Positions 17,129 through 46,607 of a stretch of 64,000 nucleotides of DNA are shown in pieces (within the stretch, counting starts at the first letter, position 1; each line of letters opens with the position of its first letter). This DNA is from Saccharomycodes ludwigii (Eukaryota > Ascomycota > Saccharomycetes > Saccharomycodales > Saccharomycodaceae). The notes beneath the pieces are model-generated. The model worked only from the letters and a program-made list of their open reading frames with translations, had not been told where the DNA came from and made no database searches. Where the stretch lies: assembly GCF_020623625.1 (NCBI RefSeq), contig NC_060201.1:248001-312000 (forward strand). The letters run 5' to 3'. The position numbers were made by a program, and so were the translations under genes.

Positions 17129-17220
17129 TCCTTGTTAACTCAGTTGGTAGAGTGTTCGGCTTTTAAGCTTTGAGATTGTAAGGAACCGAAATGTCAGGGG
17201 TTCGAGCCCCCTATGAGGAG
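17129..17220 (+). tRNA. tRNA-Lys(UUU) with intron
   Basis: The 92-base gene becomes a 73-base mature tRNA. The acceptor 5' strand TCCTTGT pairs with the 3' end ATGAGGA plus discriminator G. The anticodon stem TTCGG/CCGAA encloses loop C-T-TTT-A-A. A 19-base intron (17164-17182 approximately) interrupts the loop one base 3' of the anticodon, the canonical place, and the same isoacceptor has an intron in Sc. The B box is GGTTCGAGCC. The D stem is ACTC/GAGT, where Sc has GCTC/GAGC: a compensatory A10-U25 pair that also alters the A box. T-runs begin within 20 bases downstream. A second copy in opposite orientation lies at 46516-46607 with one intron difference. Confidence 0.96.
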
Positions 17221-32000: not shown

Positions 32001-33500
32001 TCATATATACGTATATTCTAAATCACCAGTCTTAAAATCAGACACTTCATGATCTTCATCATTACTCCAGCTTACGCCGTTAATGTTTTTAAGTATTTCA
32101 AGCTCTTCTGGATCTGTCATTGAATATATTGAACAATTATGTTCATCCCTTAGTTTGCAATTGCGTTGTGAGTCAATAGAAGTACATAAACTTATTGAGT
32201 CACTATTACTTGTATTATTATTTTTACTTTCCCTATTTCTAAATTTAATACTCTTTGCATTAACTGATAATAAAGGTTTCATAATGTTACAGATTTTATG
32301 AATACCTAATTCTTTATTATTATCCAACGTTAATAATGAATTGTTAACTAATCCAATCATATTGTTCCCATTATGTACCGGTTTGTTGTTGATCTCAGTG
32401 TTGCTTCTATAATGATCTAGAATCACATTCCCGCACTGCCTACTATATATATCTGAATTGTTTCCGCTTGTTGTGCATTTCAAAACGGCGTTAGTATCGT
32501 GGGTACCAGCGCCATTTGTTAGTAACTCCCATGCAACCACGGTACCATGAATCATGTCACTAGTATATAAAAAATTGTCCCTTGGGGAATATTTCAAATC
32601 CTGTATCATGTCTTTATCAGCATGATGCAGTTCCATTAATTTCCCGTTAATTTTTCTGATATCCCAAATATTAACCACATTCGGAGCTTTATCCACCGTA
32701 GCAACGCTGTACTCATTTAACCAACAACAAGGTCTAACATAGTTGTAAGAGCTGGAAAAATGCGAGGCAGTGTTTGGAGTAATATTATCGTTATTGCTTG
32801 AGGATTTTGTTAAACTTGAGCTTGGTGTGAAATATTCATCTTCACGTAAATCTAACAATCCAATAACTTTTTCCCATGTCAAACATAACAACGTTGAATG
32901 TACGGGATTAATAGCAAATGATTCCAAACCTTCAAATGAATTAAAATATAAAGGAGTGCTACTTTTACTGTTAAGGTCCGAAATTGCAATGGCCTCGTTG
33001 ATAGAGCTGCAAACTCCTTGACCATTATTCCAATTTTGGATCTTTTTAATTATATATTTGTTTTGGTGACTGGTTTTTGTTGAAAAAAAATATTTCGAAT
33101 AATTATAATGCTTAATTATTTTGGTGTAATTTTTATTGTCAGTTTTTATAATATTTAAACGGCCATTCTGATGTCCAACGGCACAAGTTATGAAAGTGTT
33201 GTCTTGATTACAGGTTACTAATTCACTTGTACTAATTGGTTCACCAGGTACAGTTATTTTTTGTAGTGTCCTTAAAATGGTAGTTTTTTCTTGCTCTTGC
33301 TCCGACTCACTTGTTTTATCTGTTGTTTGAAATATTTTTAAATTTTCTACATTGGATGAAGTTGAAACCAAAATAGTCCCTGTGTCATTATCGGTACTTA
33401 ATGATGTAACTTCTGCATGCTCATCACTTCCAGAGTCTATTATTTGATTATTCCAATATTCACTTTGGATTTTTTTTTTGAAAAACGTGCTTTCAGTCAT
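32001..33500 (-). CDS. DSE1: WD40-like daughter-specific protein Dse1
   Basis: The product (499 aa; Sc Dse1 is 573) is a beta-propeller protein; in Sc, Dse1 is expressed in daughter cells under Ace2 and acts in cell-wall separation after division. WD-type strands can be seen, for example VVNIWDIRKI near the middle, HHADKDMIQDLKYSPRDNFLYTSD and TVVAWELLTN. The N-terminus has Asn- and Ser-rich loops. The name rests mostly on position: DSE1 lies between YCK3 and RSP5 in Sc with this same orientation (YER124C). Sequence conservation of this family is modest. Confidence 0.78.
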   Translation of the reverse strand: MTESTFFKKKIQSEYWNNQIIDSGSDEHAEVTSLSTDNDTGTILVSTSSNVENLKIFQTTDKTSESEQEQEKTTILRTLQKITVPGEPISTSELVTCNQDNTFITCAVGHQNGRLNIIKTDNKNYTKIIKHYNYSKYFFSTKTSHQNKYIIKKIQNWNNGQGVCSSINEAIAISDLNSKSSTPLYFNSFEGLESFAINPVHSTLLCLTWEKVIGLLDLREDEYFTPSSSLTKSSSNNDNITPNTASHFSSSYNYVRPCCWLNEYSVATVDKAPNVVNIWDIRKINGKLMELHHADKDMIQDLKYSPRDNFLYTSDMIHGTVVAWELLTNGAGTHDTNAVLKCTTSGNNSDIYSRQCGNVILDHYRSNTEINNKPVHNGNNMIGLVNNSLLTLDNNKELGIHKICNIMKPLLSVNAKSIKFRNRESKNNNTSNSDSISLCTSIDSQRNCKLRDEHNCSIYSMTDPEELEILKNINGVSWSNDEDHEVSDFKTGDLEYTYI

Positions 33501-34470
33501 GTCCCTATAGTGTCACTGTAAATTCTGGAAGAATTGTGCTATTTTTCTCTTTTTGAAAAAAAAAAAAAAAAAAAAAAATTTTTTTTAGGTAGGCAACTAA
33601 GGATATTTGTAATTCTCTGTTTGCTAGAAATTAAATATTTATTTTGTGGTTTCACTATCTTTGTTTAAACTGGTAACTTTTTTCTTTCATTTTTTTATTA
33701 ATATATATATTTAAGAAAGATTTAGAGTTAATAATGTGTTACCAATAAAGTAGAAATAGATGAAAATTGAATGCATTGATAGAAAAAAAAAAAAAAAATG
33801 GTGAAAGAAACTTCAAGACAGACAAGAAGCTTATCAAATTCAATAAAAAGTTATAGTAATAAAAAAAAAAAAAAAAATATATATTTTATCCTTGAAATTT
33901 TCATTTGACATTTATACACACATATATATATAGTATTTCTTTTAACTTTTTTTTATAATGAAAGAAAAGAAAGATAAGTTAGACTAGACACATTTAGTCC
34001 CCTTTATTTTATTTTATTTTATTTTATTTTTTAATTTTTATTAATTTTTAAAATTTTTTTTGTTTATATTTATATAAAATGTTTATGGTTTTTCTTGTTT
34101 ATTTTGTTGTTATTGTTGGGTATATTATTAAATAAAGCCTTTCCCTCTAAAAATTTGAATATAAATGACCTTAGTAATTTATAATTGATGTATATATATA
34201 CATACTTGTTTCTATTTGTACTTAAGAAAATAAAAGTTGCTGGTTTGAATAAAATGCCAGCATTTTGCTTTTTTATTTTTATTTTTATTCTTTTTCCCTT
34301 TTTGTCATTGTTGGACAAACTCCGACGTGTCACTCAATATTACATAAGAAAAAAAAAAAAACAACCAGCAATATCCGCTTGTCATGTTACACGACCCCTC
34401 AGCAAAAAAGAAAAAGAAAAGGAAACAACTTATACTTATTTTTAATACATATGTAAATAAATAACATATA

Positions 34471-34502
<32 letters not shown>

Positions 34503-34578
34503 ATTCATTATCACTAACCCCATAGAGGCTATATAAATATATACAGCAGAGGTCAAAAAGTAAAAAGTAAAAAACCCA
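33501..34578. other. Spacer between DSE1 promoter and beta-glucosidase 3' end
   Basis: The spacer is made of the DSE1 promoter (right of 33500) and the 3' flank of the beta-glucosidase gene. A-runs lie at 33557-33579, 33783-33798 and 33860-33876, TTTTA repeats at about 34007-34035, a TA microsatellite at 34467-34480 and AAT repeats at 34481-34501. It is the left edge of an 8.25 kb segment absent between the Sc orthologues. The short frames at 34065-34456 lack any recognisable feature. Confidence 0.5.
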
Positions 34579-37149
34579 TCACAAACCGGTCCAATATGTT
34601 GTTTCCTTAACTGTAAATTTACCAAACAATGGAAGCTCGTCACTACTACGACCTACAAATACTCTATAGTCACCACTTTCACTACACCATCTACCCTTAA
34701 ATTCATCAAAATAAGAAGTAATATGCCTAATAGATAACTCAAATCCAACTTTAACACTAGAACCCTTTTCAATAAACACCTTCTTGAAACCTTTCAATTC
34801 TTTAACTGGTTTTGTAACATTACCACAGGTGGCAGCCCCAACATAGAGCTGAACAACTTCCTTACCAGCATAATCACCAGTGTTGCTAACTGTACATGCT
34901 ACATTCAACTTACCTTCATCGAACAAAGGTGAGACTTCCAAATGTTCAAACTCAAAAGTTGTATAAGATAAACCATAGCCAAATGGGAATAAAACAGTTC
35001 TTTGCAACTTGTCATAATATCTATAACCAACAAAAATATCTTCTCCGTATAAAACTCTGCCCATTTCAGTGTGGAAGTTCAAATAGGCTGGATTATCCTC
35101 ATTTTTTTTGGGCCAACTTAACGACAACTTACCACTTGGAACTACATCACCGAACAAAACATCAGCAATGGAGTTACCCAACTCATTGCCACCATACCAA
35201 GCTTGGATGAAGGCATTACAGTCGGCAATCCAGGGCATTTCTACTGGAGTTCCACTTTGATTGATAACAACAGTATTTGGGTTAGCTTTTAAAACAGCAG
35301 AAACCAAATCATCAGTTTTACGTGGCAAAGACATATCAGTACGATCATAACCCTCACTTTCCCACTCACTGTTCAAGCCAATGCATAGAACAACTTTGTC
35401 ATGAGACTTAGCCAACTCAACTGCTTTAGCAATTTCTTCTTGGGCATCAATAACTTTAGTAAAACCAACTTGTAAGCCACCGCCACCAAAGTCAGTAGCA
35501 ATCTTAGATGTAAAACCGGATCCATATTCAACTGTAATTTTGTATTTCTTACCAGCTTCTAGGTAAACAATAGCCGTCTCCTCAATGGTTCCGCTACTAA
35601 AACAAAAAGTACCTTTTGTTTGAGTAGTCTTATTATCTATAACCAATTTGTCATCAATATATAACAAAGCTGTACCAAAAACCTGGACACCAAATTGATA
35701 ATCACCAGTTTCTTTGGGGGTTAAATAACCTTCAAAATCAATATAAAATTCTTTAGTTTTAGGGTTAATTTTTTGATTGTCATAATCAAATAAAGTGACA
35801 AACGATTTATTAACAATTTTAGTATCAATTGGCACTTCCTTGGCAACTTTTCTATCTTGAGCACTTTTTAGATAGAAGGAGGCCTTGGAACCGTTCTTGG
35901 AGGGATCCAAATCGTTAGTTAGGACTTCTAATAACCCACTCAAAGCCTTATGCGCATGACAACCAATAGTATAGGCCACTTTCTTACTCCCACCCAACTT
36001 TGATTGGATACCTTGTAATGGAGTAACAACATAGTAGGGATTTAATGAAGCAGAACCACCACCAGAATAAGTATTAAAGGCAGTGGCGTTAGGACCTATA
36101 ACAGCAATAGAATCTTTTTCGGCGGACAATGGCAAAATATTATTGTTGTTTTTCAATAAAACAATAGTTTCAGCACCAAGCTCTCTTAGTAAAGAACTCG
36201 TTTCCTTAGTGTTATTTAAAGCATCTTCAGTTGTTGAATAGCCATGGACATCCAAATTATTTTGTTTGACAAACTTCATTAAACTCAAAACATGACGGCA
36301 ACGTTCGTTGATATGGTCTTCTTCACTCAAGTCCCCCTCTTTACTTTGCAAAAGGTGTTTGACAATGGGCCATTGTCTAAATTTAGAGGGTCCTGGGAAC
36401 TCGATATCTAGTCCATTTTTTAAGCTTTCAACTGTGGAATATGTACCAAACCAATCACTCATAACCAAACCATTCCAAGCCCATTCTTTTCTTAAGATGT
36501 TAGAAATTAAACTTTCATTTTCAGAACAATGTGTACCATTAACTTTATTATAAGCAGTCATAATACAAGCTGGATTGGCCAATTTAATGGCTAATCTAAA
36601 GGGTTCCAAATAAATTTCTCTTAAAGCTCTTTGAGAGACAATTGAGTTGGAACTAAATCTTTCATGCTCCAAGTCATTACAAACAAAATGTTTTACAGTG
36701 GCACCAATATCACCGTCAGCTTGGATTCCCTTGACAATGGAAGCAGTAGCGATACCACTTAAATATGGATCTTCACTAAAACTTTCAAAACCACGCCCGC
36801 CCAAAGGACCCCTTTGGATATTTGTTGTGGGGCCTAAAATGATATGCGCATTCTTATGTCTGGCTTCAACAGCCATTAATTTACCGGCTTTTTCTAGTAG
36901 ATCTGAATTAAAGGATGAAGCTAAACCAGTACCGTTTGGGAAACAAGCACTTGGTACAGAATCAAAAAATCGAGTACCCCTAATCCCATTGGGACCGTCA
37001 CTTACACGTATCTGCCAATCAATGCCCAAGCGTGGTATTTTACTTGTATGCCAAAAATCAACAGCGGATAACAGCTCTACTTTTTCTTGGAGAGTCAATT
37101 GTTTTAAGATTTCTTCAACATCAAAGGTATTTTTTTTAGGGAAAGACAT
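34579..37149 (-). CDS. Intracellular GH3 beta-glucosidase with PA14 domain
   Basis: The product (856 aa) is a glycoside hydrolase family 3 enzyme of the Kluyveromyces BglI type (KmBglI is 845), expected to release glucose from cellobiose and other beta-glucosides. The GH3 N-terminal domain covers about 13-300 and holds the nucleophile in GLVMSDWFGTYS (D232). A PA14 insert at about 405-560 is followed by the rest of the GH3 C-domain. Glu597 in EWESEGYDR fits the acid/base residue, at the same spacing from the nucleophile as in KmBglI (D225/E590). A fibronectin-III-like domain ends the protein. There is no signal peptide or membrane segment, so it should be cytosolic and depend on uptake of substrate. 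It is divergent from the sugar permease at 38947. It lacks the Asn/Gln runs common in neighbours. Confidence 0.93.
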   Translation of the reverse strand: MSFPKKNTFDVEEILKQLTLQEKVELLSAVDFWHTSKIPRLGIDWQIRVSDGPNGIRGTRFFDSVPSACFPNGTGLASSFNSDLLEKAGKLMAVEARHKNAHIILGPTTNIQRGPLGGRGFESFSEDPYLSGIATASIVKGIQADGDIGATVKHFVCNDLEHERFSSNSIVSQRALREIYLEPFRLAIKLANPACIMTAYNKVNGTHCSENESLISNILRKEWAWNGLVMSDWFGTYSTVESLKNGLDIEFPGPSKFRQWPIVKHLLQSKEGDLSEEDHINERCRHVLSLMKFVKQNNLDVHGYSTTEDALNNTKETSSLLRELGAETIVLLKNNNNILPLSAEKDSIAVIGPNATAFNTYSGGGSASLNPYYVVTPLQGIQSKLGGSKKVAYTIGCHAHKALSGLLEVLTNDLDPSKNGSKASFYLKSAQDRKVAKEVPIDTKIVNKSFVTLFDYDNQKINPKTKEFYIDFEGYLTPKETGDYQFGVQVFGTALLYIDDKLVIDNKTTQTKGTFCFSSGTIEETAIVYLEAGKKYKITVEYGSGFTSKIATDFGGGGLQVGFTKVIDAQEEIAKAVELAKSHDKVVLCIGLNSEWESEGYDRTDMSLPRKTDDLVSAVLKANPNTVVINQSGTPVEMPWIADCNAFIQAWYGGNELGNSIADVLFGDVVPSGKLSLSWPKKNEDNPAYLNFHTEMGRVLYGEDIFVGYRYYDKLQRTVLFPFGYGLSYTTFEFEHLEVSPLFDEGKLNVACTVSNTGDYAGKEVVQLYVGAATCGNVTKPVKELKGFKKVFIEKGSSVKVGFELSIRHITSYFDEFKGRWCSESGDYRVFVGRSSDELPLFGKFTVKETTYWTGL

Positions 37150-37310
37150 GATTTATTAGGAAAATATTTTTTTTTTTTTTTTTTTTCCCTTCTTTTTTTC
37201 TTTCTTTTTTTTTTTTTTTTTTTTGGTTATTTTAGTTATTTTTAGGGCACAAACAGAAAACAATTGGTTTTCATTACTATGTAATATATAAAAAGTTTTA
37301 TAACATGACG

Positions 37311-37344
<34 letters not shown>

Positions 37345-38019
37345 TATGCTTATATACAACAGTATGGTTTTGTTTTTGTTTTAATTATTTCTTTATGGAA
37401 TATGTTAACTTTGTTTGTTATTTCAGATTATATGTGAATGTAATTAAGCCAACAATTTATCCCAGATCCACCCATATTTTTTTCCTTTTTTTCCTCCAAG
37501 CAGTAAAAATGAACACTTTGTAATAATATACATATTTATTATTTATTATGATGGAGTTTTTACTATAAACTCATTAATTTATTCAGTCGGGTGCTTCTAT
37601 AGCCTTACTCCTCACTTTTTCCTTCAGAGCAATGAAAATATATATAAAAGTATCTTAGAGTCTCATGTAGATCAAGTATTTGTTCCGAAAGCGAAGCTGT
37701 TCAATTGCCGCTTATAAACTCAAAGAAAACAAACAAAGATATCACAACAATGCAATTAATTTTCCATGTTATGTTTTATTATTGATAAATATTGTAACAA
37801 ATAAATAATTTTATAAAGTCGGAGAAAAGGAGATCTTGGAGGGGAAAACAAAAAAAGAAAAAAAAAAAAAAGGAATTTATTTTATTTTATTTTATTTTTA
37901 TTTAATATTTTTTTCATCTATATAGATTATGTGGTAGATTTAGTATTGATTTTATCCTTTTTTCCCTTTTTTTCTGCCAAGCAGAAAATAAATCAAGTGT
38001 CTACCGCCTTTTCTGTGTT

Positions 38020-38073
38020 TACTCCAAATAATAAATAATAATAATAATAATTTATTATGGAATATTTGGAGTA
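38020..38073. repeat. Inverted repeat with 11-bp perfect arms
   Basis: TACTCCAAATA (38020-38030) and TATTTGGAGTA (38063-38073) are perfect reverse complements separated by 32 bases of AAT-rich DNA whose inner ends (ATAAAT/ATTTAT) extend the symmetry imperfectly. It sits centrally in the divergent promoter, so it could be a dimeric activator site or a hairpin. Confidence 0.7.
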
Positions 38074-38386
38074 TTTTATGGATTGTTATTATTATAGTTA
38101 TCCACCATCAGCATTAAAAAAAGAAAAGAAAAATAACAACAAGGATTAATAATTTTTACAGAAAACAAGCGTGCAAATACAAAAAGGATTAAATAAGGTG
38201 TCAATAAGCAAATATCCATATTTTATGACAATGCGTCATGGAAACATGGAATATTTTTGTTTTTTTCCCTCTGTCACTTAGCTTTTCACTCCTTTTGTGC
38301 TTGTCATATTTTCACACGAGTGCTAAAAACAAAACAAAAATATATACACAAAGCACATCAGCTAGGCCAAAAGAGGCCTTACATTA

Positions 38387-38397
38387 CCCCACAAAAA
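38387..38397 (-). promoter_or_regulatory. Mig1-type glucose-repression site
   Basis: On the minus strand the sequence reads TTTTTGTGGGG, which fits the Mig1 consensus W5-S-Y-GGGG exactly. It lies 550 bp upstream of the permease and about 1.2 kb upstream of the beta-glucosidase. Glucose repression of the pair is inferred from this motif and from the expected role. Confidence 0.5.
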
Positions 38398-38538
38398 AAA
38401 AATTGTTATTATTATTATTGTTATTATTATTGTTATTTTTTCCACATCAAAGATTATAACAAACTGAATAACATTATCTAAGGCTTAATAATTTTGGCAC
38501 TACATATTTCCCGTAATCCATCCCCTCACGAAATAAAG

Positions 38539-38571
<33 letters not shown>

Positions 38572-38719
38572 ATTATTTTTAAATATTGCAGTAATCAAGC
38601 ATTTCAAATTATAGTTTAAACACTTGAATAAACAACGCCAAGGTGCTTCTTATGGAAAAAAAAATTCAAAGTAAACGAATAAATTTATGAACAAGATTAA
38701 AAATAATAAATAAATACAG

Positions 38720-38756
<37 letters not shown>

Positions 38757-38946
38757 TATAAAGTCAAAATAATATTTTTTTGAAAACCTCTTTTCTTTCT
38801 TCCCTATCTTATATTTATTTTCAATTGTAAATCCACTTATAATTTCATATAACTTTATTACAGCCAGTGCTATTTTATAAAAAAATAAAAAATTAATAAA
38901 AAAAAAAAAAGAAAACAAGATATTAATATTAATAACAATATCAATA

Positions 38947-40689
38947 ATGGTTGGTCTATTTAAATCCAAGTCTATTCAAAAAGAACAGCCAGTCATCACA
39001 ACTTCAACAGATGGTGCTTCATCGTCCTCTACTCCATCTCATGAAAACGTAAATGAAATGACAGTAATGCAACAAGGAGAGGATACAGAAAAAAATGTGT
39101 CAGGTTTAACTGTTGAAGATGTTATTCCTGATTTTGACGGTAAGAAATGGTATCAATTAGCTCATATTCGTTCTCTATGTTTTACAATTTTTGTGATATC
39201 ATTAACTTCATGTAATAATGGGTATGATGGTAGTTTATTAAACTCTTTGTATACTGAAGATCAGTTTAACAATGCTATTGGAAATGTGTCTGGCGCTGTT
39301 TTGGGTAGTATGAGCAACGGGTTTGCTTTTGGTTGTTTAATTACTTTTCTTATTACGCCGTATTTAGTTGACACTTATGGCCGTAGAGCTACCTTATATA
39401 TCGGAGATATTATTATGATTATTGGTACCATTTTACAAGCTTGTTCGGGTGCGTGGATTCATGGATTGCCTTCTAATTATAAGAAAAAAGATGTCTTTGG
39501 AATGTTGTTAGCCTCAAGAATTATTTTGGGTATAGGCTCCGGTGTTGCAAGTGTTGCTGCTCCCTCCTTAATCAGTGAGATTTCCTTTCCAACTCATAGA
39601 CAAACAGTGACCACCTATTATAATAGCAGTTGGTATTTGGGTGCTATTGTTTCTGCTTGGGTATCATTTGGCTGCAAGAATTTGCAACATCATTGGGATT
39701 GGAGAGTACCTGGTATTATCCAAGGGTTTTTCCCGTTACTTCAATTGTGTTTATTACCATTTTTTGTTCCTGAATCACCAAGATTTTTGGTTGCCAAGAA
39801 TAAATCAATGCTGGCTAGAGAAATCTTGAATAAGTATCATGCTGGTGGTTACGAAGGTGCTGATGAACTAATTGATTATGAAATGACTGAAATTCAATTG
39901 GCTATCCAACAAGAAAAACTTGCATCTTCTTCCAGCTACGCTGAATTTTACAAAACCAAAGCCAATTTGAGAAGATTGTGGATTATTGTTTGGTTGGCTA
40001 TTTTTATGCAATTGAGCGGTAATGGGTTAGTCTCTTACTACTTGGGAAAAGTTTTAACTTCCATTGGTATCAAATCTACCAATGAACAATTGATTGTTAA
40101 CGGTGGCTTAATGATTTACAACTGGGGTGTTTGTGTCATCCAATCGTTTCTAATTGTCAATAGATTAAAGAGAAGATTAACATTTAACATTTCTGTAGGT
40201 GGCATGTTGTTTTGCTTTACCATCTGGACAATTTTATCTGCTATTAATCAAAAACGTGACTTTCAAGATAAGAGTTTGGGACAAGGTGTTTTGGCTATGA
40301 TATTTTTTTACTATTTTTTTTACAATTTTGGTTTAAATGGTATGCCATTTACTTATGTAACTGAAATTTTACCATTTACTTTAAGAGGCAAGGGTATGAA
40401 TATTTTCACTTTAGTACAATACGGAGTGATGTTATATAATGGATTTGTCAATCCAATTGCCATGGATGCTATAGAATGGAAATATTACATTGTATATTGC
40501 TGTATTTTAGCTGTTGAATTTCTAGTGTGCTTCACAACTTTTGTTGAAACTAGTGGTCGTACATTGGAAGAAGTGGCCGAAGTTTTCGGTGATGGTATTC
40601 AAGATTTGAACAATATTAGTGGACTTGCCGTTATGGAGGAGGATAAAATAAAGCCAAATGATGAAACTGAATTCCAGGAATATGTTTAA
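38947..40689 (+). CDS. LAC12-like MFS sugar permease (lactose/cellobiose type)
   Basis: The product (580 aa; K. lactis Lac12 is 587) is a sugar:proton symporter of the major facilitator superfamily with about 12 membrane segments between residues 75 and 530. Sugar-porter signatures include VDTYGRRATLYIG after TM2, PESPRFLVAK after TM6, and ETSGRTLEEVAEVF after TM12. FMQLSGNGLVSYYLGKVLTS in TM7 and the KYHAGG...DYEMTEIQLAI loop are typical of the fungal lactose/cellodextrin permease group rather than hexose transporters. The cytosolic N-terminus is Ser/Thr-rich. Pairing with an intracellular beta-glucosidase points to a beta-linked disaccharide such as cellobiose; lactose is the alternative. 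Substrate is not decided by sequence. Confidence 0.9.
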   Translation: MVGLFKSKSIQKEQPVITTSTDGASSSSTPSHENVNEMTVMQQGEDTEKNVSGLTVEDVIPDFDGKKWYQLAHIRSLCFTIFVISLTSCNNGYDGSLLNSLYTEDQFNNAIGNVSGAVLGSMSNGFAFGCLITFLITPYLVDTYGRRATLYIGDIIMIIGTILQACSGAWIHGLPSNYKKKDVFGMLLASRIILGIGSGVASVAAPSLISEISFPTHRQTVTTYYNSSWYLGAIVSAWVSFGCKNLQHHWDWRVPGIIQGFFPLLQLCLLPFFVPESPRFLVAKNKSMLAREILNKYHAGGYEGADELIDYEMTEIQLAIQQEKLASSSSYAEFYKTKANLRRLWIIVWLAIFMQLSGNGLVSYYLGKVLTSIGIKSTNEQLIVNGGLMIYNWGVCVIQSFLIVNRLKRRLTFNISVGGMLFCFTIWTILSAINQKRDFQDKSLGQGVLAMIFFYYFFYNFGLNGMPFTYVTEILPFTLRGKGMNIFTLVQYGVMLYNGFVNPIAMDAIEWKYYIVYCCILAVEFLVCFTTFVETSGRTLEEVAEVFGDGIQDLNNISGLAVMEEDKIKPNDETEFQEYV

Positions 40690-41753
40690 ATTAAATTTTT
40701 TTTTTATATTTTTTCTTTTTTCTAATGGGTAATAAAAATATACATATTTTTATAAAAATTTGGTAATTTGGCGATGAATTTTATATATAGTTTTTATTTA
40801 ACTTTTTTTTTCTTATTGTTTTTCTTTTTTGTTTTTCCTTTTGTTTTTCCTTTTGTTTTTCCTTTTCAGCGACAATATTGTTGTTACGGATATCCGGTAT
40901 TCTGAGTTATTAAATAAGATAACCGAGCCCCTTTTAAAAAGAGATTTATCAAAAAATGAAAAAGTTTTGAACCAGTTCACTTTGTACGATAGAACTTATC
41001 GATATTGTGATACTAATACCCGGACATATACTATTTTTATTTTATTATTATATTGTTGTTACACACCCAAATTTGCTCTTACCCCCTTTTTTTTTTTTTA
41101 TTTTTTTTATTTTATTTAGTTTAGAATTGGGCTACGATTCTTTCTGGGCTGTAAGGAAAAGTGGGCTGTTTTTGTTCTTTGTTTTGTACGTGTAAATACA
41201 GAAAAAGAAAACGGTTGTCCAGAACGAAATGGTATAATAAACAGCTTACACCCGTACCACACACACACACACACACAGCTAACTAATTTTAAATACCTGA
41301 GAAAAAAAGGAAAAAGGAAAAAAGGAAAAAGAGGAGAAGGAGGCGATAATTATCACTACTTAAAAAATAATTAAAATAAATAACAAAACAAAATAGAAAT
41401 AAAAAAAATTTTTTTTTTTTTTAGGTTAATTGTAAGCAAGATTATATTCAAAAATACTTAAAGCAGAATAACAATATTACCAAAAACGAAAACAAAAAAA
41501 GAACAAAAAAAAAACACAAACTTATATTCATTTAATATTACTATCCAAGATAAGAATCTAATTTTTTTCCTTTTCCCCTTCTCCCTCTTTTTTTGTTTTC
41601 ATTCATTTTATTATCATTATAACCTTTTTTCTTTTCTAATAACTTTTCTTTAGTTGTCTTATAATTAAAATAAAAAAAAGAGAAAAAAAAGATAGGTTAA
41701 TCCGAAAACAACAATACCAACAGCGACATCACAAAACAGTACAAACAAAAATA
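40690..41753. promoter_or_regulatory. RSP5 promoter region and right edge of inserted segment
   Basis: The region holds the permease 3' end and the RSP5 promoter. A 12-bp GTTTTTCCTTTT triplet lies at 40831-40866, the CGG-N4-CCG palindrome at 40887-40896, a near-Reb1 ATACCCGG at about 41016-41023, (CA)10 at 41258-41277, and an A8T15 step at about 41401-41423. A similar poly(A)-poly(T)-TTAGGT step occurs at 33557-33592 on the other side of the inserted segment. No gene is seen. Confidence 0.5.
40887..40896. promoter_or_regulatory. CGG-N4-CCG palindrome
   Basis: CGGATATCCG is a perfect 10-bp palindrome with the inverted CGG triplets bound by Zn2Cys6 factors. It lies about 200 bp after the permease stop and about 860 bp before RSP5. 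Which gene it serves, if any, is unknown. Confidence 0.35.
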
Positions 41754-44210
41754 ATGACCACCATATCAGCCAAATTAGTATGTGCTGAGTCATTATATAA
41801 AAGGGATGTTTTCAGATTTCCAGATCCATTTGCAGTCTTGACTATTGATGGTTCACAAACTAAGTCCACCAGTGCCGCTAAGAAAACTTTAAATCCATAC
41901 TGGAATGAGTCTTTTAAATTCGTTAATGTTAATGAAAACTCTATTTTAACCATTCAAGTATTTGACCAAAAGAAATTTAAAAAGAAAGATCAAGGCTTTT
42001 TGGGCGTAGTTAATGTTCGTATAGGGGATGTACTGGGTCATTTAGACGAAGACTTGAACAATAATGAACATCAAGAAACTATTACTAGGGACTTGAAAAA
42101 GTCTAATGATGGTGCAGTTGTATCCGGTAGATTAATTATTTCTCTATCCAAACTCAACGGTAACGCGAGCAATAGTAGTAGCAGTGCGACACGCCATTCT
42201 TCTGCTACCAACAACACTACTCCTGGTAGAAATAATACCGTACGTTCTAATGGTTCAAACACTAATACTTCTAATAGAGGTCATAATAGCACGAGTACAA
42301 ATAGCCATACCCGTTCTACGTCAAGTAGTGCCTCGGCAACAACCAGTAATAACATCTCATCTGCAGCAGCTACTGGTGCATCTACTTCAAATGGATCCCG
42401 GTCTGCTGACTCTCAAAGACAATATTCATCTTTTGAGGACCAGTATGGCCGTTTACCACCAGGATGGGAGAGAAGAACAGATAATTTTGGCCGTACCTAC
42501 TATGTTGATCACAATACAAGAACAACAACTTGGAAAAGACCTGCTATGGAGCAGGTGAGCGCTGGTACTTCTTCCAGCACTAATGGCAACAGTAGTACAG
42601 AGTCTGACGCTAGAAGACAGCAATATAGAGGTAGAAGCTTGCCAGGCAATTCGGAGCACGGATCTGGCAATGCTACTCCCACTACCCCCACTACTACAGG
42701 TAATGCCTCATCTGCTGGCAATACGAATGCTGCTGCTATGGCAGCTACTGGTGGTACTACTAGTGGCTTGGGTGAATTACCTCCCGGTTGGGAACAAAGA
42801 TATACTCCAGAGGGGAGAGCATATTTTGTAGATCATAACACTAGGACTACTACTTGGGTTGATCCTAGAAGACAGCAATATATTCGTACTTATGGGCCTA
42901 CTAATAATTCTATTCAGCAACAGCCTGTTTCTCAATTAGGCCCATTACCATCAGGCTGGGAAATGAGATTAACGAATACTGCAAGAGTTTATTTCGTCGA
43001 CCACAATACTAAAACTACGACATGGGATGATCCAAGATTACCATCATCTTTGGATCAAAATGTTCCTCAATATAAGCGTGATTTTAGACGTAAAGTTATT
43101 TATTTTAGATCGCAACCTGCATTAAGGATATTGCCCGGACAATGTCACATTAAAGTTCGTAGAAAAAATATTTTTGAAGATGCCTACCAAGAGATTATGA
43201 GACAAACGCCTGAAGATTTGAAAAAGAGATTGATGATCAAATTCGATGGTGAAGAGGGTCTAGATTATGGTGGTGTTTCCAGGGAATTTTTCTTTTTATT
43301 ATCGCATGAAATGTTTAACCCAATCTACTGTTTGTTCGAGTATTCCTCCCATGATAATTACACCATTCAAATTAATCCTAACAGTGGTATTAACCCTGAG
43401 CATTTGAATTATTTCAAATTTATTGGTAGAGTCGTTGGTTTAGGTGTTTTCCACAGGAGATTTCTGGATGCATTTTTTGTTGCTGCATTCTACAAGATGA
43501 TGCTAAGGAAGAAAGTTGTACTACAAGATATGGAAGGTGTGGATAACGAAGTTTACAACAGTTTAAAGTGGATTTTAGAAAATCCTATTGAAGGCATTTT
43601 AGATTTGACTTTTAGTGTTGATGATGACAGGTTTGGGGAAATTGTCACTATTGATTTGAAAGCAGACGGAAGAGATGTCGAAGTAACAGATGAAAACAAA
43701 AAGGAATATGTTGAACTATTTACACAGTGGAAGATTTGTGATAGAATTAAAGAACAATTGAAGGCCTTTATGGATGGGTTTAATGAGATCATACCTGAAG
43801 ATTTAGTTACTGTTTTTGATGAGCGTGAATTGGAATTATTGATTGGTGGTATAGCAGAAATCGATGTTGATGATTGGAAGAAGCATACTGATTATCGTGG
43901 ATACCAAGAGTCAGATCAAACCATTCAATGGTTCTGGAAGATTGTTTCTGAGTGGGATAATGAACAAAAAGCACGTCTATTGCAATTCACTACGGGTACA
44001 TCGAGGATACCAGTTAATGGTTTTAAGGATTTACAAGGTTCTGATGGACCAAGAAGATTTACTATTGAAAAAGCTGGTGAGATTGACCAACTACCAAAAT
44101 CGCATACTTGCTTTAACAGAGTAGATCTACCATCGTATGATAATTATGAGTCTATGAAACAAAAGTTGACTATTGCTGTGGAAGAAACTATTGGTTTTGG
44201 TCAAGAATGA
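41754..44210 (+). CDS. RSP5: NEDD4-family HECT E3 ubiquitin ligase Rsp5
   Basis: The product (818 aa; Sc 809) ubiquitinates plasma-membrane permeases, RNA polymerase II and many other targets. A C2 domain (about 5-130) binds phosphoinositides. A Ser/Thr/Asn-rich linker follows. Three WW domains start at about 233, 341 and 397, each L-P-x-G-W-E ... Y-[YF]-V-D-H-N-T-[RK]-T-T-T-W, and recognise PPxY adaptors. The HECT domain fills about 480-818, with the catalytic cysteine C786 in [11 protein letters not shown], 32 residues from the end exactly as in Sc Rsp5 (C777 of 809). In Sc it is next to DSE1; here the sugar module lies between them. Confidence 0.98.
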
Positions 44211-46515: not shown

Positions 46516-46607
46516 CTCCTCATAGGGGGCTCGAACCCCTGACATTTCGGTTCCTTGCAATCTCAAAGCTTAAAAGCCGAACACTCTACCAACTGAGTTA
46601 ACAAGGA
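46516..46607 (-). tRNA. tRNA-Lys(UUU) with intron, second copy
   Basis: This is the reverse-strand copy of the gene at 17129-17220: same 92-base length, same anticodon TTT, 19-base intron, B box and A10-U25 D-stem pair. The only difference seen within the gene is one intron base (GATTGC here, GATTGT there). Flanking identity is limited to GAGAACTCG before the gene and TTCTTT after it. A T5 run follows the 3' end on the minus strand. Confidence 0.96.

What the first reader, a model, noticed from the sequence alone, without database searches (positions are those of the whole stretch)
33501..41753. Divergent beta-glucosidase/LAC12-like permease module inserted between DSE1 and RSP5
DSE1 and RSP5 are immediate neighbours in Sc (YER124C-YER125W). 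Here 8.25 kb separates them and holds exactly two genes: a cytosolic GH3/PA14 beta-glucosidase and a disaccharide permease facing away from it across one promoter. The enzyme has no secretion signal, so the permease supplies the missing step. This is a compact uptake-plus-hydrolysis cluster comparable in logic to LAC12-LAC4 and Kluyveromyces cellobiose genes, but at a different place. It may explain beta-glucoside assimilation in this yeast.
Basis: partly seen in the sequence, partly recalled or inferred. Interest (0 to 1): 0.75.

Follow-up and report, generated by a model that had tools for sequence, protein, structure and literature searches.

The report
Yeast cellobiose uptake-and-splitting gene pair
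In the wine-spoilage yeast Saccharomycodes ludwigii two back-to-back genes, a sugar carrier and an enzyme that splits the imported sugar inside the cell, look like a cellobiose-using pair of a type already known from Kluyveromyces; the less expected part is that the same pair may have crossed into the distantly related yeast Brettanomyces.

Summary
Between the DSE1-position gene and RSP5 lie 8,253 bp with two intact genes: a GH3/PA14 beta-glucosidase (34579-37149, minus) and a sugar-porter permease (38947-40689, plus), divergent across 1,797 bp. The genome is Saccharomycodes ludwigii. The enzyme is 59-61% identical to a protein matching the whole of PDB 3abz (beta-glucosidase I), catalytic residues kept. 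So it is a Cel1-Cel2-type cellobiose pair, not LAC12-like. No GH2 lactase match was found; S. ludwigii is reported not to use lactose, and strain UTAD17 was beta-glucosidase positive on cellobiose medium. The site is probably not a private insertion: Hanseniaspora menglaensis locus tags run beta-glucosidase 3117, permease 3118, RSP5 3121. The unexpected part: Brettanomyces, of another class, has both genes (consecutive tags, twice, in B. nanus), and its proteins nest inside the Saccharomycodaceae/Kluyveromyces clade; placing them outside is rejected for both genes (AU p 8e-5, 0.005), though the two genes disagree on where they attach. This suggests transfer. Substrate and induction are untested. 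A new member of a known kind, with a transfer hypothesis worth following.

The parts
32001..33500 (-). Left flank gene at the DSE1 position (499 aa)
   Evidence: ORF; no Pfam match; DSE1 identity by position only
34579..37149 (-). GH3/PA14 beta-glucosidase, Cel2/BglI type (856 aa), no secretion signal seen; nucleophile D232, acid/base E599 by alignment
   Evidence: 61.1% identity over 837 aligned residues, 59.5% by BLASTP, to P0141, which matches PDB 3abz over its whole length
37150..38946 (.). Shared divergent intergenic region (1,797 bp, 23% GC) with poly-A/poly-T tracts; one Mig1-like site at 38387-38397 (minus), not above chance
38947..40689 (+). Sugar porter family permease, Cel1-type (580 aa), predicted cellobiose/beta-glucoside importer
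41754..44210 (+). Right flank gene RSP5 (818 aa), anchor for synteny

Best explanation
The two genes are the Saccharomycodes ludwigii version of the yeast CEL1-CEL2 system. The permease imports cellobiose (and perhaps other short beta-glucosides) across the plasma membrane; how it is energised is not determined. The GH3/PA14 enzyme, made without a visible secretion signal, cleaves the sugar to glucose in the cytosol. The pair has probably stood beside RSP5 since before Saccharomycodes and Hanseniaspora separated. Shown here: gene structure, family membership, catalytic residues, no match to GH1 and no second GH3 of this type in this genome, and position. Inferred: substrate, cytosolic location, co-regulation from the shared intergenic region, and age of the locus.
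For: Enzyme: match to PDB 3abz, 'Beta-glucosidase I', over residues 8-856 at 1104 bits (that 3abz is the K. marxianus enzyme, and its residue numbers D225/E590, are recalled); both catalytic residues kept. Permease: 54-55% identity to K. dobzhanskii P0027 and K. lactis KLLA0_D00374g P0036, which I take to be Cel1 because each has the same longest-contig length as a beta-glucosidase hit of its species (P0133, P0151). The S. ludwigii, Hanseniaspora, Brettanomyces and Kluyveromyces permeases form one clade, 100/99. K. dobzhanskii CEL1+CEL2 gave S. cerevisiae growth on cellobiose, and Cel1 did not carry lactose (PMC6926475, parts 1-3 of 5 read). Own genome: GH3 in 2 places, the other in a GlcNAc-type cluster; GH1 0 matches; GH2 C-domain 0 matches; the best-scoring other sugar porter is 27% identical. 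Phenotype: S. ludwigii UTAD17 scored positive for beta-glucosidase, tested on cellobiose medium (PMC6920815, passages); inability to use lactose and galactose stated in PMC7903802 (passages, section 7). Close locus tags elsewhere: H. menglaensis 3117/3118, B. nanus 2376/2377 and 4628/4629, H. vineae 4402 with 4404/4405.
Against: No transport, enzyme or expression data for these two genes. Identification of P0027/P0036 as Cel1 is by inference. Synteny rests on locus-tag numbers of one Hanseniaspora species, with two unidentified genes (3119, 3120) between permease and RSP5; in H. valbyensis the listed permease P0015 and beta-glucosidases P0157 and P0173 lie on contigs of other lengths than that of RSP5 (P0330). 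No shared regulatory motif survived a control. The enzyme and permease trees differ in detail (enzyme nearest Brettanomyces, permease nearest Hanseniaspora).
Confidence: 0.85

Rival explanations
1. LAC12-like lactose or bifunctional permease: the pair, or its permease, mainly serves lactose or both lactose and cellobiose, as Kluyveromyces Lac12 does.
For: Some homologues carry the depositor name 'Lactose permease' (P0005, P0008, P0091); Lac12 can carry cellobiose (PMC6926475).
Against: 29% identity to recalled Lac12 against 54% to the Kluyveromyces Cel1 candidate; no GH2 C-domain match in the genome; species reported not to use lactose or galactose; Cel1 does not carry lactose.
Confidence: 0.05
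2. The pair is a recent insertion private to S. ludwigii (relocation or horizontal gain), unrelated to the Hanseniaspora copies.
For: The enzyme is closer to three Brettanomyces nanus proteins (64-67%) than to any of the seven named Hanseniaspora ones compared (53-61%), and window+Hanseniaspora monophyly is rejected, p 0.0076.
Against: H. menglaensis has the order enzyme-permease-RSP5 by tags 3117, 3118, 3121, about 0.9% by chance under simple assumptions; the permease groups with Hanseniaspora, 92/85; GC3 of the pair (0.279, 0.281) lies within that of five neighbours (0.266-0.326).
Confidence: 0.2
3. Ordinary differential loss of old paralogues, with no horizontal transfer, explains why Brettanomyces proteins sit inside the Saccharomycodaceae/Kluyveromyces clade.
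For: Both genes are multi-copy in Brettanomyces and Hanseniaspora (7 beta-glucosidases in B. nanus by PMC7052964, passages); the two trees disagree on where Brettanomyces attaches.
Against: Needs loss of the same two paralogues in many lineages; Brettanomyces outside Saccharomycodaceae+Kluyveromyces is rejected for both full-length genes, and Brettanomyces+Ambrosiozyma+Pachysolen is rejected for the permease (p 0.0004).
Confidence: 0.3

Closest known systems
Kluyveromyces CEL1-CEL2 cellobiose cluster (Varela et al. 2019, PMC6926475)
   Same: Same two families, adjacent genes, GH3 enzyme plus disaccharide permease; 54% and 60% identity to the K. dobzhanskii proteins P0027 and P0133
   Different: Subtelomeric in K. 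lactis, here internal beside RSP5; the paper infers that CEL1 and CEL2 were unlinked in the Kluyveromyces ancestor and joined later, while here linkage looks old in Saccharomycodaceae
Beta-glucosidase I, PDB 3abz (K. marxianus, recalled; taken as Cel2)
   Same: Aligns over residues 8-856, both catalytic residues kept
   Different: 59-61% identity; in K. marxianus CEL2 sits in LAC4-LAC12-CEL2 and cellobiose uptake depends on Lac12
Scheffersomyces (Pichia) stipitis HXT2.x and BGL genes
   Same: Cellobiose transporters with intracellular beta-glucosidases (PMC9720078, passages); Scheffersomyces relatives in our tree (P0083, P0098) fall in the same wider family
   Different: Multi-copy; those relatives are more distant (48 and 52%); S. 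stipitis HXT2 proteins themselves were not compared
LAC12-LAC4
   Same: Permease plus intracellular hydrolase logic, divergent in K. marxianus
   Different: Different permease branch (29% to recalled Lac12) and a different hydrolase (lactase; GH2 membership recalled)
Brettanomyces nanus FOA43_002376/002377 and 004628/004629
   Same: Consecutive locus tags for the same two families; the 002376 enzyme is the closest named relative (67%)
   Different: Different class (Pichiomycetes), several copies; adjacency read from tags, orientation not seen

Membership tests
CEL1-CEL2 cellobiose cluster | GH3 beta-glucosidase related to Cel2 | tested here: met
   100/100 clade of 18 rows holding the window and the Kluyveromyces proteins, to the exclusion of the other fungi sampled; 59-61% to 3abz-type P0141
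CEL1-CEL2 cellobiose cluster | Cel1-type permease adjacent to it | tested here: met
   100/99 clade with the K. dobzhanskii and K. lactis candidates for Cel1; genes 1,797 bp apart
CEL1-CEL2 cellobiose cluster | Carries cellobiose and gives growth on it when co-expressed | not testable with these tools
   Strain-level phenotype only: UTAD17 beta-glucosidase positive, tested on cellobiose medium
CEL1-CEL2 cellobiose cluster | Intracellular enzyme | tested here: inconclusive
   No strongly hydrophobic N-terminal stretch (highest 9-residue mean 1.42, at residue 24); location not measured
GH3 beta-glucosidase | Catalytic nucleophile Asp and acid/base Glu | tested here: met
   D232 and E599 align with D225 and E590 of P0141 (residue numbers recalled)
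LAC12 lactose permease | Groups with Lac12 rather than Cel1 | tested here: not met
LAC12-LAC4 cluster | Companion GH2 lactase | tested here: not met
   0 GH2 C-domain matches in the 12.5 Mb genome
Hexose transporters | Groups with hexose carriers | tested here: not met
   24.6-26.5% by BLASTP to 7 other transporters of this genome; 12 other six-frame matches, some in pieces of one gene or weak, at 24-30%, best-scoring 27%

The most novel reading that the evidence does not exclude
The whole permease-plus-beta-glucosidase pair moved horizontally between classes of yeasts, from a Saccharomycodes-like donor into Brettanomyces, where it was duplicated as a unit (B. nanus 2376/2377 and 4628/4629) and now supplies part of the beta-glucosidase expansion noted for B. 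nanus.
Probability: 0.5. Interest if true: 0.55.

Novelty: new member of a known kind. Interest (0 to 1): 0.38.

Why it matters
It gives Saccharomycodes ludwigii, described as a wine-spoilage yeast (PMC7903802, abstract start), a concrete two-gene explanation for use of cellobiose, and suggests that a permease-enzyme pair can keep its place in the interior of a chromosome. If the Brettanomyces result holds, a sugar-use module moved between yeast classes that both occur in fermented drinks.

Tried and rejected
1. A second beta-glucosidase/permease pair on contig C7 (GH3 at 37.1-38.1 kb, transporter at 40.6-42.1 kb) was considered. Reading the region shows a glucosamine-6-phosphate isomerase, an amidohydrolase that fits GlcNAc-6-phosphate deacetylase, and a hexokinase-like gene around it, i.e. 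a GlcNAc-type cluster. Rejected as a second cellobiose pair.

2. Adr1-like TTGGAG sites (the Adr1 label is recalled): 4 in the shared intergenic region against 2 in 15,991 bp of the other 19 intergenic stretches of 300 bp or more in the window; 1 of 1000 shuffles reached 4. The motif was picked after looking, and a control over 1,360 hexamers showed that 185 of 200 shuffles contain some hexamer as enriched. Rejected. The single Mig1-like site (label recalled) is reached by 78 of 1000 shuffles. No CGG-N(5-17)-CCG site in the region.

3. LAC12 membership: rejected (see membership test).

4. Tree tests. The one search tests named 'win+Hans' and 'win+Hans+Kluy' were spoiled by a name filter that let in two non-Hanseniaspora rows (14 instead of 12); they were repeated correctly and only those are used. 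The Brettanomyces monophyly test was not affected. In one search the tree with own transporters has very long branches (up to 7.4), so it supports only 'Lac12 and the other transporters lie outside'. The enzyme tree cut into three parts (22 rows) keeps window+Brettanomyces in 3 of 3 (76/78, 98/96, 87/88), but window+Hanseniaspora is then rejected in 0 of 3 (p 0.133, 0.059, 0.132) and Brettanomyces-outside in 2 of 3 (p 0.029, 0.100, 0.021).

5. A structure prediction of the permease from its single sequence came out at mean pLDDT 39, too poor to use; no fold search was made.

6. Papers: the ten searches listed no paper that, from title and abstract start, describes this pair in S. ludwigii or its transfer to Brettanomyces. 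The library lacks most subscription journals. I opened seven papers: PMC6926475 (parts 1-3 of 5), PMC7903802 (passages and section 7), and passages of PMC6920815, PMC8567612, PMC9628858, PMC7052964 and PMC9720078. PMC8567612 and PMC9628858 added nothing used here.
Full report
What is there. The window is C2:248001-312000 of a 12.5 Mb, 8-contig genome. Its RSP5 differs from a named Saccharomycodes ludwigii record at 1 of 818 residues, and contig C7 carries a GlcNAc-type cluster, consistent with genes reported as SCLUD7.g6, g8 and g11 in the published S. ludwigii genome (PMC7903802, passages). So the organism is S. ludwigii. Between the gene at the DSE1 position (32001-33500, minus; no Pfam match) and RSP5 (41754-44210, plus) lie 8,253 bp with two intact genes, 34579-37149 (minus, 856 aa) and 38947-40689 (plus, 580 aa), divergent across 1,797 bp. 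Two further ORFs of 100 aa or more lie antisense to the enzyme gene. No tRNA and no Rfam match was reported in the gap, and tblastn of 240 related proteins against the window with seven ORFs masked gave nothing at E 0.01.

The enzyme. Pfam gives GH3 N- and C-domains, with PA14 inside the span of the C-domain, and Fn3-like. Its best solved relative is PDB 3abz, 'Beta-glucosidase I' (K. marxianus, recalled), over residues 8-856 at 1104 bits. P0141, which matches 3abz over all 845 residues, is 61.1% identical over 837 aligned residues, 59.5% by BLASTP. The catalytic Asp and Glu (numbers recalled) align with D232 and E599. The N-terminus has no signal-like stretch. The genome search found 2 GH3 places, the other inside the GlcNAc-type cluster; GH1 gave 0 matches and the GH2 C-domain 0.

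The permease. It matches Sugar_tr over the full profile and the sugar porter subfamily above its cut-off. It is 54-55% identical to K. dobzhanskii P0027 and K. lactis KLLA0_D00374g. I take these to be Cel1 because each has the same longest-contig length as a Cel2-type hit of its species (P0133, P0151); this is inference, not annotation. Identity to seven other transporters of this genome is 24.6-26.5% by BLASTP; the 12 other six-frame matches show 24-30%. Lac12 falls outside the Cel1 group, in a tree with long branches. A single-sequence structure prediction was too poor to use.

What is known of this kind. Varela et al. 2019 (PMC6926475; parts 1-3 of 5 read) showed that K. dobzhanskii CEL1 and CEL2 together let S. 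cerevisiae grow on cellobiose, and that Cel1 does not carry lactose. S. ludwigii is stated not to use lactose or galactose (PMC7903802, passages, section 7), and strain UTAD17 was positive for beta-glucosidase, tested on cellobiose medium (PMC6920815, passages). PMC7903802 mentions a putative beta-glucosidase, but its main text holds no occurrence of 'cellobiose'. The pair therefore fits a cellobiose system better than a lactose one.

Is the place special? In Hanseniaspora menglaensis the listed rows read beta-glucosidase QEN19_003117, permease QEN19_003118 and RSP5 QEN19_003121, each on a contig of 1,147,820 bp. Of the 5 H. menglaensis rows of these two families that were listed (3 permeases, 2 enzymes), 2 are near RSP5. 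A simple simulation gives 0.9% for one of 4 loci to fall within 4 genes of RSP5 (4,000 genes assumed). Two genes, 3119 and 3120, are unidentified. In H. guilliermondii one permease (P0012) and RSP5 (P0329) have the same longest contig, 1,551,527 bp, at unknown distance. In H. valbyensis the listed permease P0015 and enzymes P0157 and P0173 are on contigs of other lengths than RSP5's (P0330). H. opuntiae rows give no matching contig length (P0053, P0092 against P0337, P0339). No RSP5 row named H. vineae or H. osmophila was among the 120 listed. The most economical reading is that the pair stood beside RSP5 in the ancestor of the family and moved or was lost in some lineages; the evidence is moderate.

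The unexpected part. Among the listed enzymes the closest named ones are three Brettanomyces nanus proteins (64-67%), ahead of the seven named Hanseniaspora (53-61%) and four Kluyveromyces (59-61%; P0141 counted by its match to 3abz) proteins compared; a fourth B. nanus protein and two of B. naardenensis are at 59-62%. Brettanomyces belongs to another class (Pichiomycetes; Saccharomycodes and Hanseniaspora are Saccharomycetes). In a careful tree of 33 enzymes the window protein and 6 Brettanomyces proteins form a clade (99/97). Holding Brettanomyces outside window+Hanseniaspora+Kluyveromyces/S. mikatae is rejected (p 8e-5), and window+Hanseniaspora is rejected (p 0.0076). With the alignment cut in three, window+Brettanomyces stays in 3 of 3 parts, but window+Hanseniaspora is rejected in 0 of 3 and Brettanomyces-outside in 2 of 3. 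For the permease (36 rows) Brettanomyces outside window+Hanseniaspora+Kluyveromyces is rejected (p 0.005), and Brettanomyces with Ambrosiozyma and Pachysolen is rejected (p 0.0004). Here, however, the window groups with Hanseniaspora (92/85, not starred), and window+all Brettanomyces is rejected (p 0.007; window+B. nanus 2377 alone p 0.039); Brettanomyces monophyly is not rejected (p 0.105). In B. nanus the tags of enzyme and permease are consecutive twice (2376/2377; 4628/4629). RSP5 as a control shows the expected S. ludwigii+Hanseniaspora clade (100/99, 20 rows), and no listed RSP5 row is named Brettanomyces.

Rows dropped. The careful trees use 32 of 119 listed enzymes and 35 of 119 listed permeases besides the window, chosen mainly as rows with organism names; unnamed rows and some named ones were left out, among them the long-branched Eremothecium sinecaudum P0061. 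The quick trees with unnamed rows (57 permeases and 55 enzymes) also put Brettanomyces inside the clade with Kluyveromyces and Saccharomycodaceae. The homologue lists themselves are capped at the best 120 (520 permeases and 7,891 enzymes passed the threshold). The window+Brettanomyces and window+Hanseniaspora groupings were looked at after the quick trees were seen; 'Brettanomyces outside' is the species-tree expectation.

Reading. Brettanomyces sequences nested inside a Saccharomycetes clade for both genes, with copies whose tags are consecutive, suggest transfer of the pair into Brettanomyces from a Saccharomycodaceae-like donor. The two genes do not agree on the exact attachment point, so a single event from the Saccharomycodes branch is not shown. 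Direction is inferred from nesting. Differential loss remains possible.

Regulation. The shared intergenic region suggests joint control, but no motif survived a control; co-regulation is an inference from layout.

Verdict. The possible transfer to Brettanomyces is the part worth following.

Noticed in passing
own genome C7:34.4-46.9 kb (L028 445-8263, L029 1358-2905): GlcNAc-type cluster: glucosamine-6-phosphate isomerase, amidohydrolase (deacetylase-like), sugar porter, hexokinase-like gene, and a 994-aa GH3 protein nearest the beta-N-acetylhexosaminidase model (152 bits, below its cut-off of 207) with no Pfam match after residue 363. PMC7903802 reports the catabolic genes; the passages I read do not mention this GH3 protein.
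   Followed up: partly
P0142, Saccharomyces mikatae SMKI_12G0080: A Cel2-type beta-glucosidase in a Saccharomyces species, grouping with the Kluyveromyces proteins (99/99); I know of none in S. cerevisiae (recalled).
   Followed up: no
own genome C6:651112-663232: Three similar hexose-transporter-like genes in a row within about 12 kb.
   Followed up: no
window 17129-17220 and 46516-46607: ARAGORN, run with the bacterial code, reports two tRNA-like genes with a 4-base anticodon reading (ttaa), perhaps intron-containing tRNAs misread.
   Followed up: no
P0242, Blyttiomyces sp. JEL0837 HDU76_013326: A chytrid-labelled RSP5-like protein of 1,420 aa scoring above S. cerevisiae Rsp5 in bits though only 52% identical; perhaps repeated domains.
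   Followed up: no
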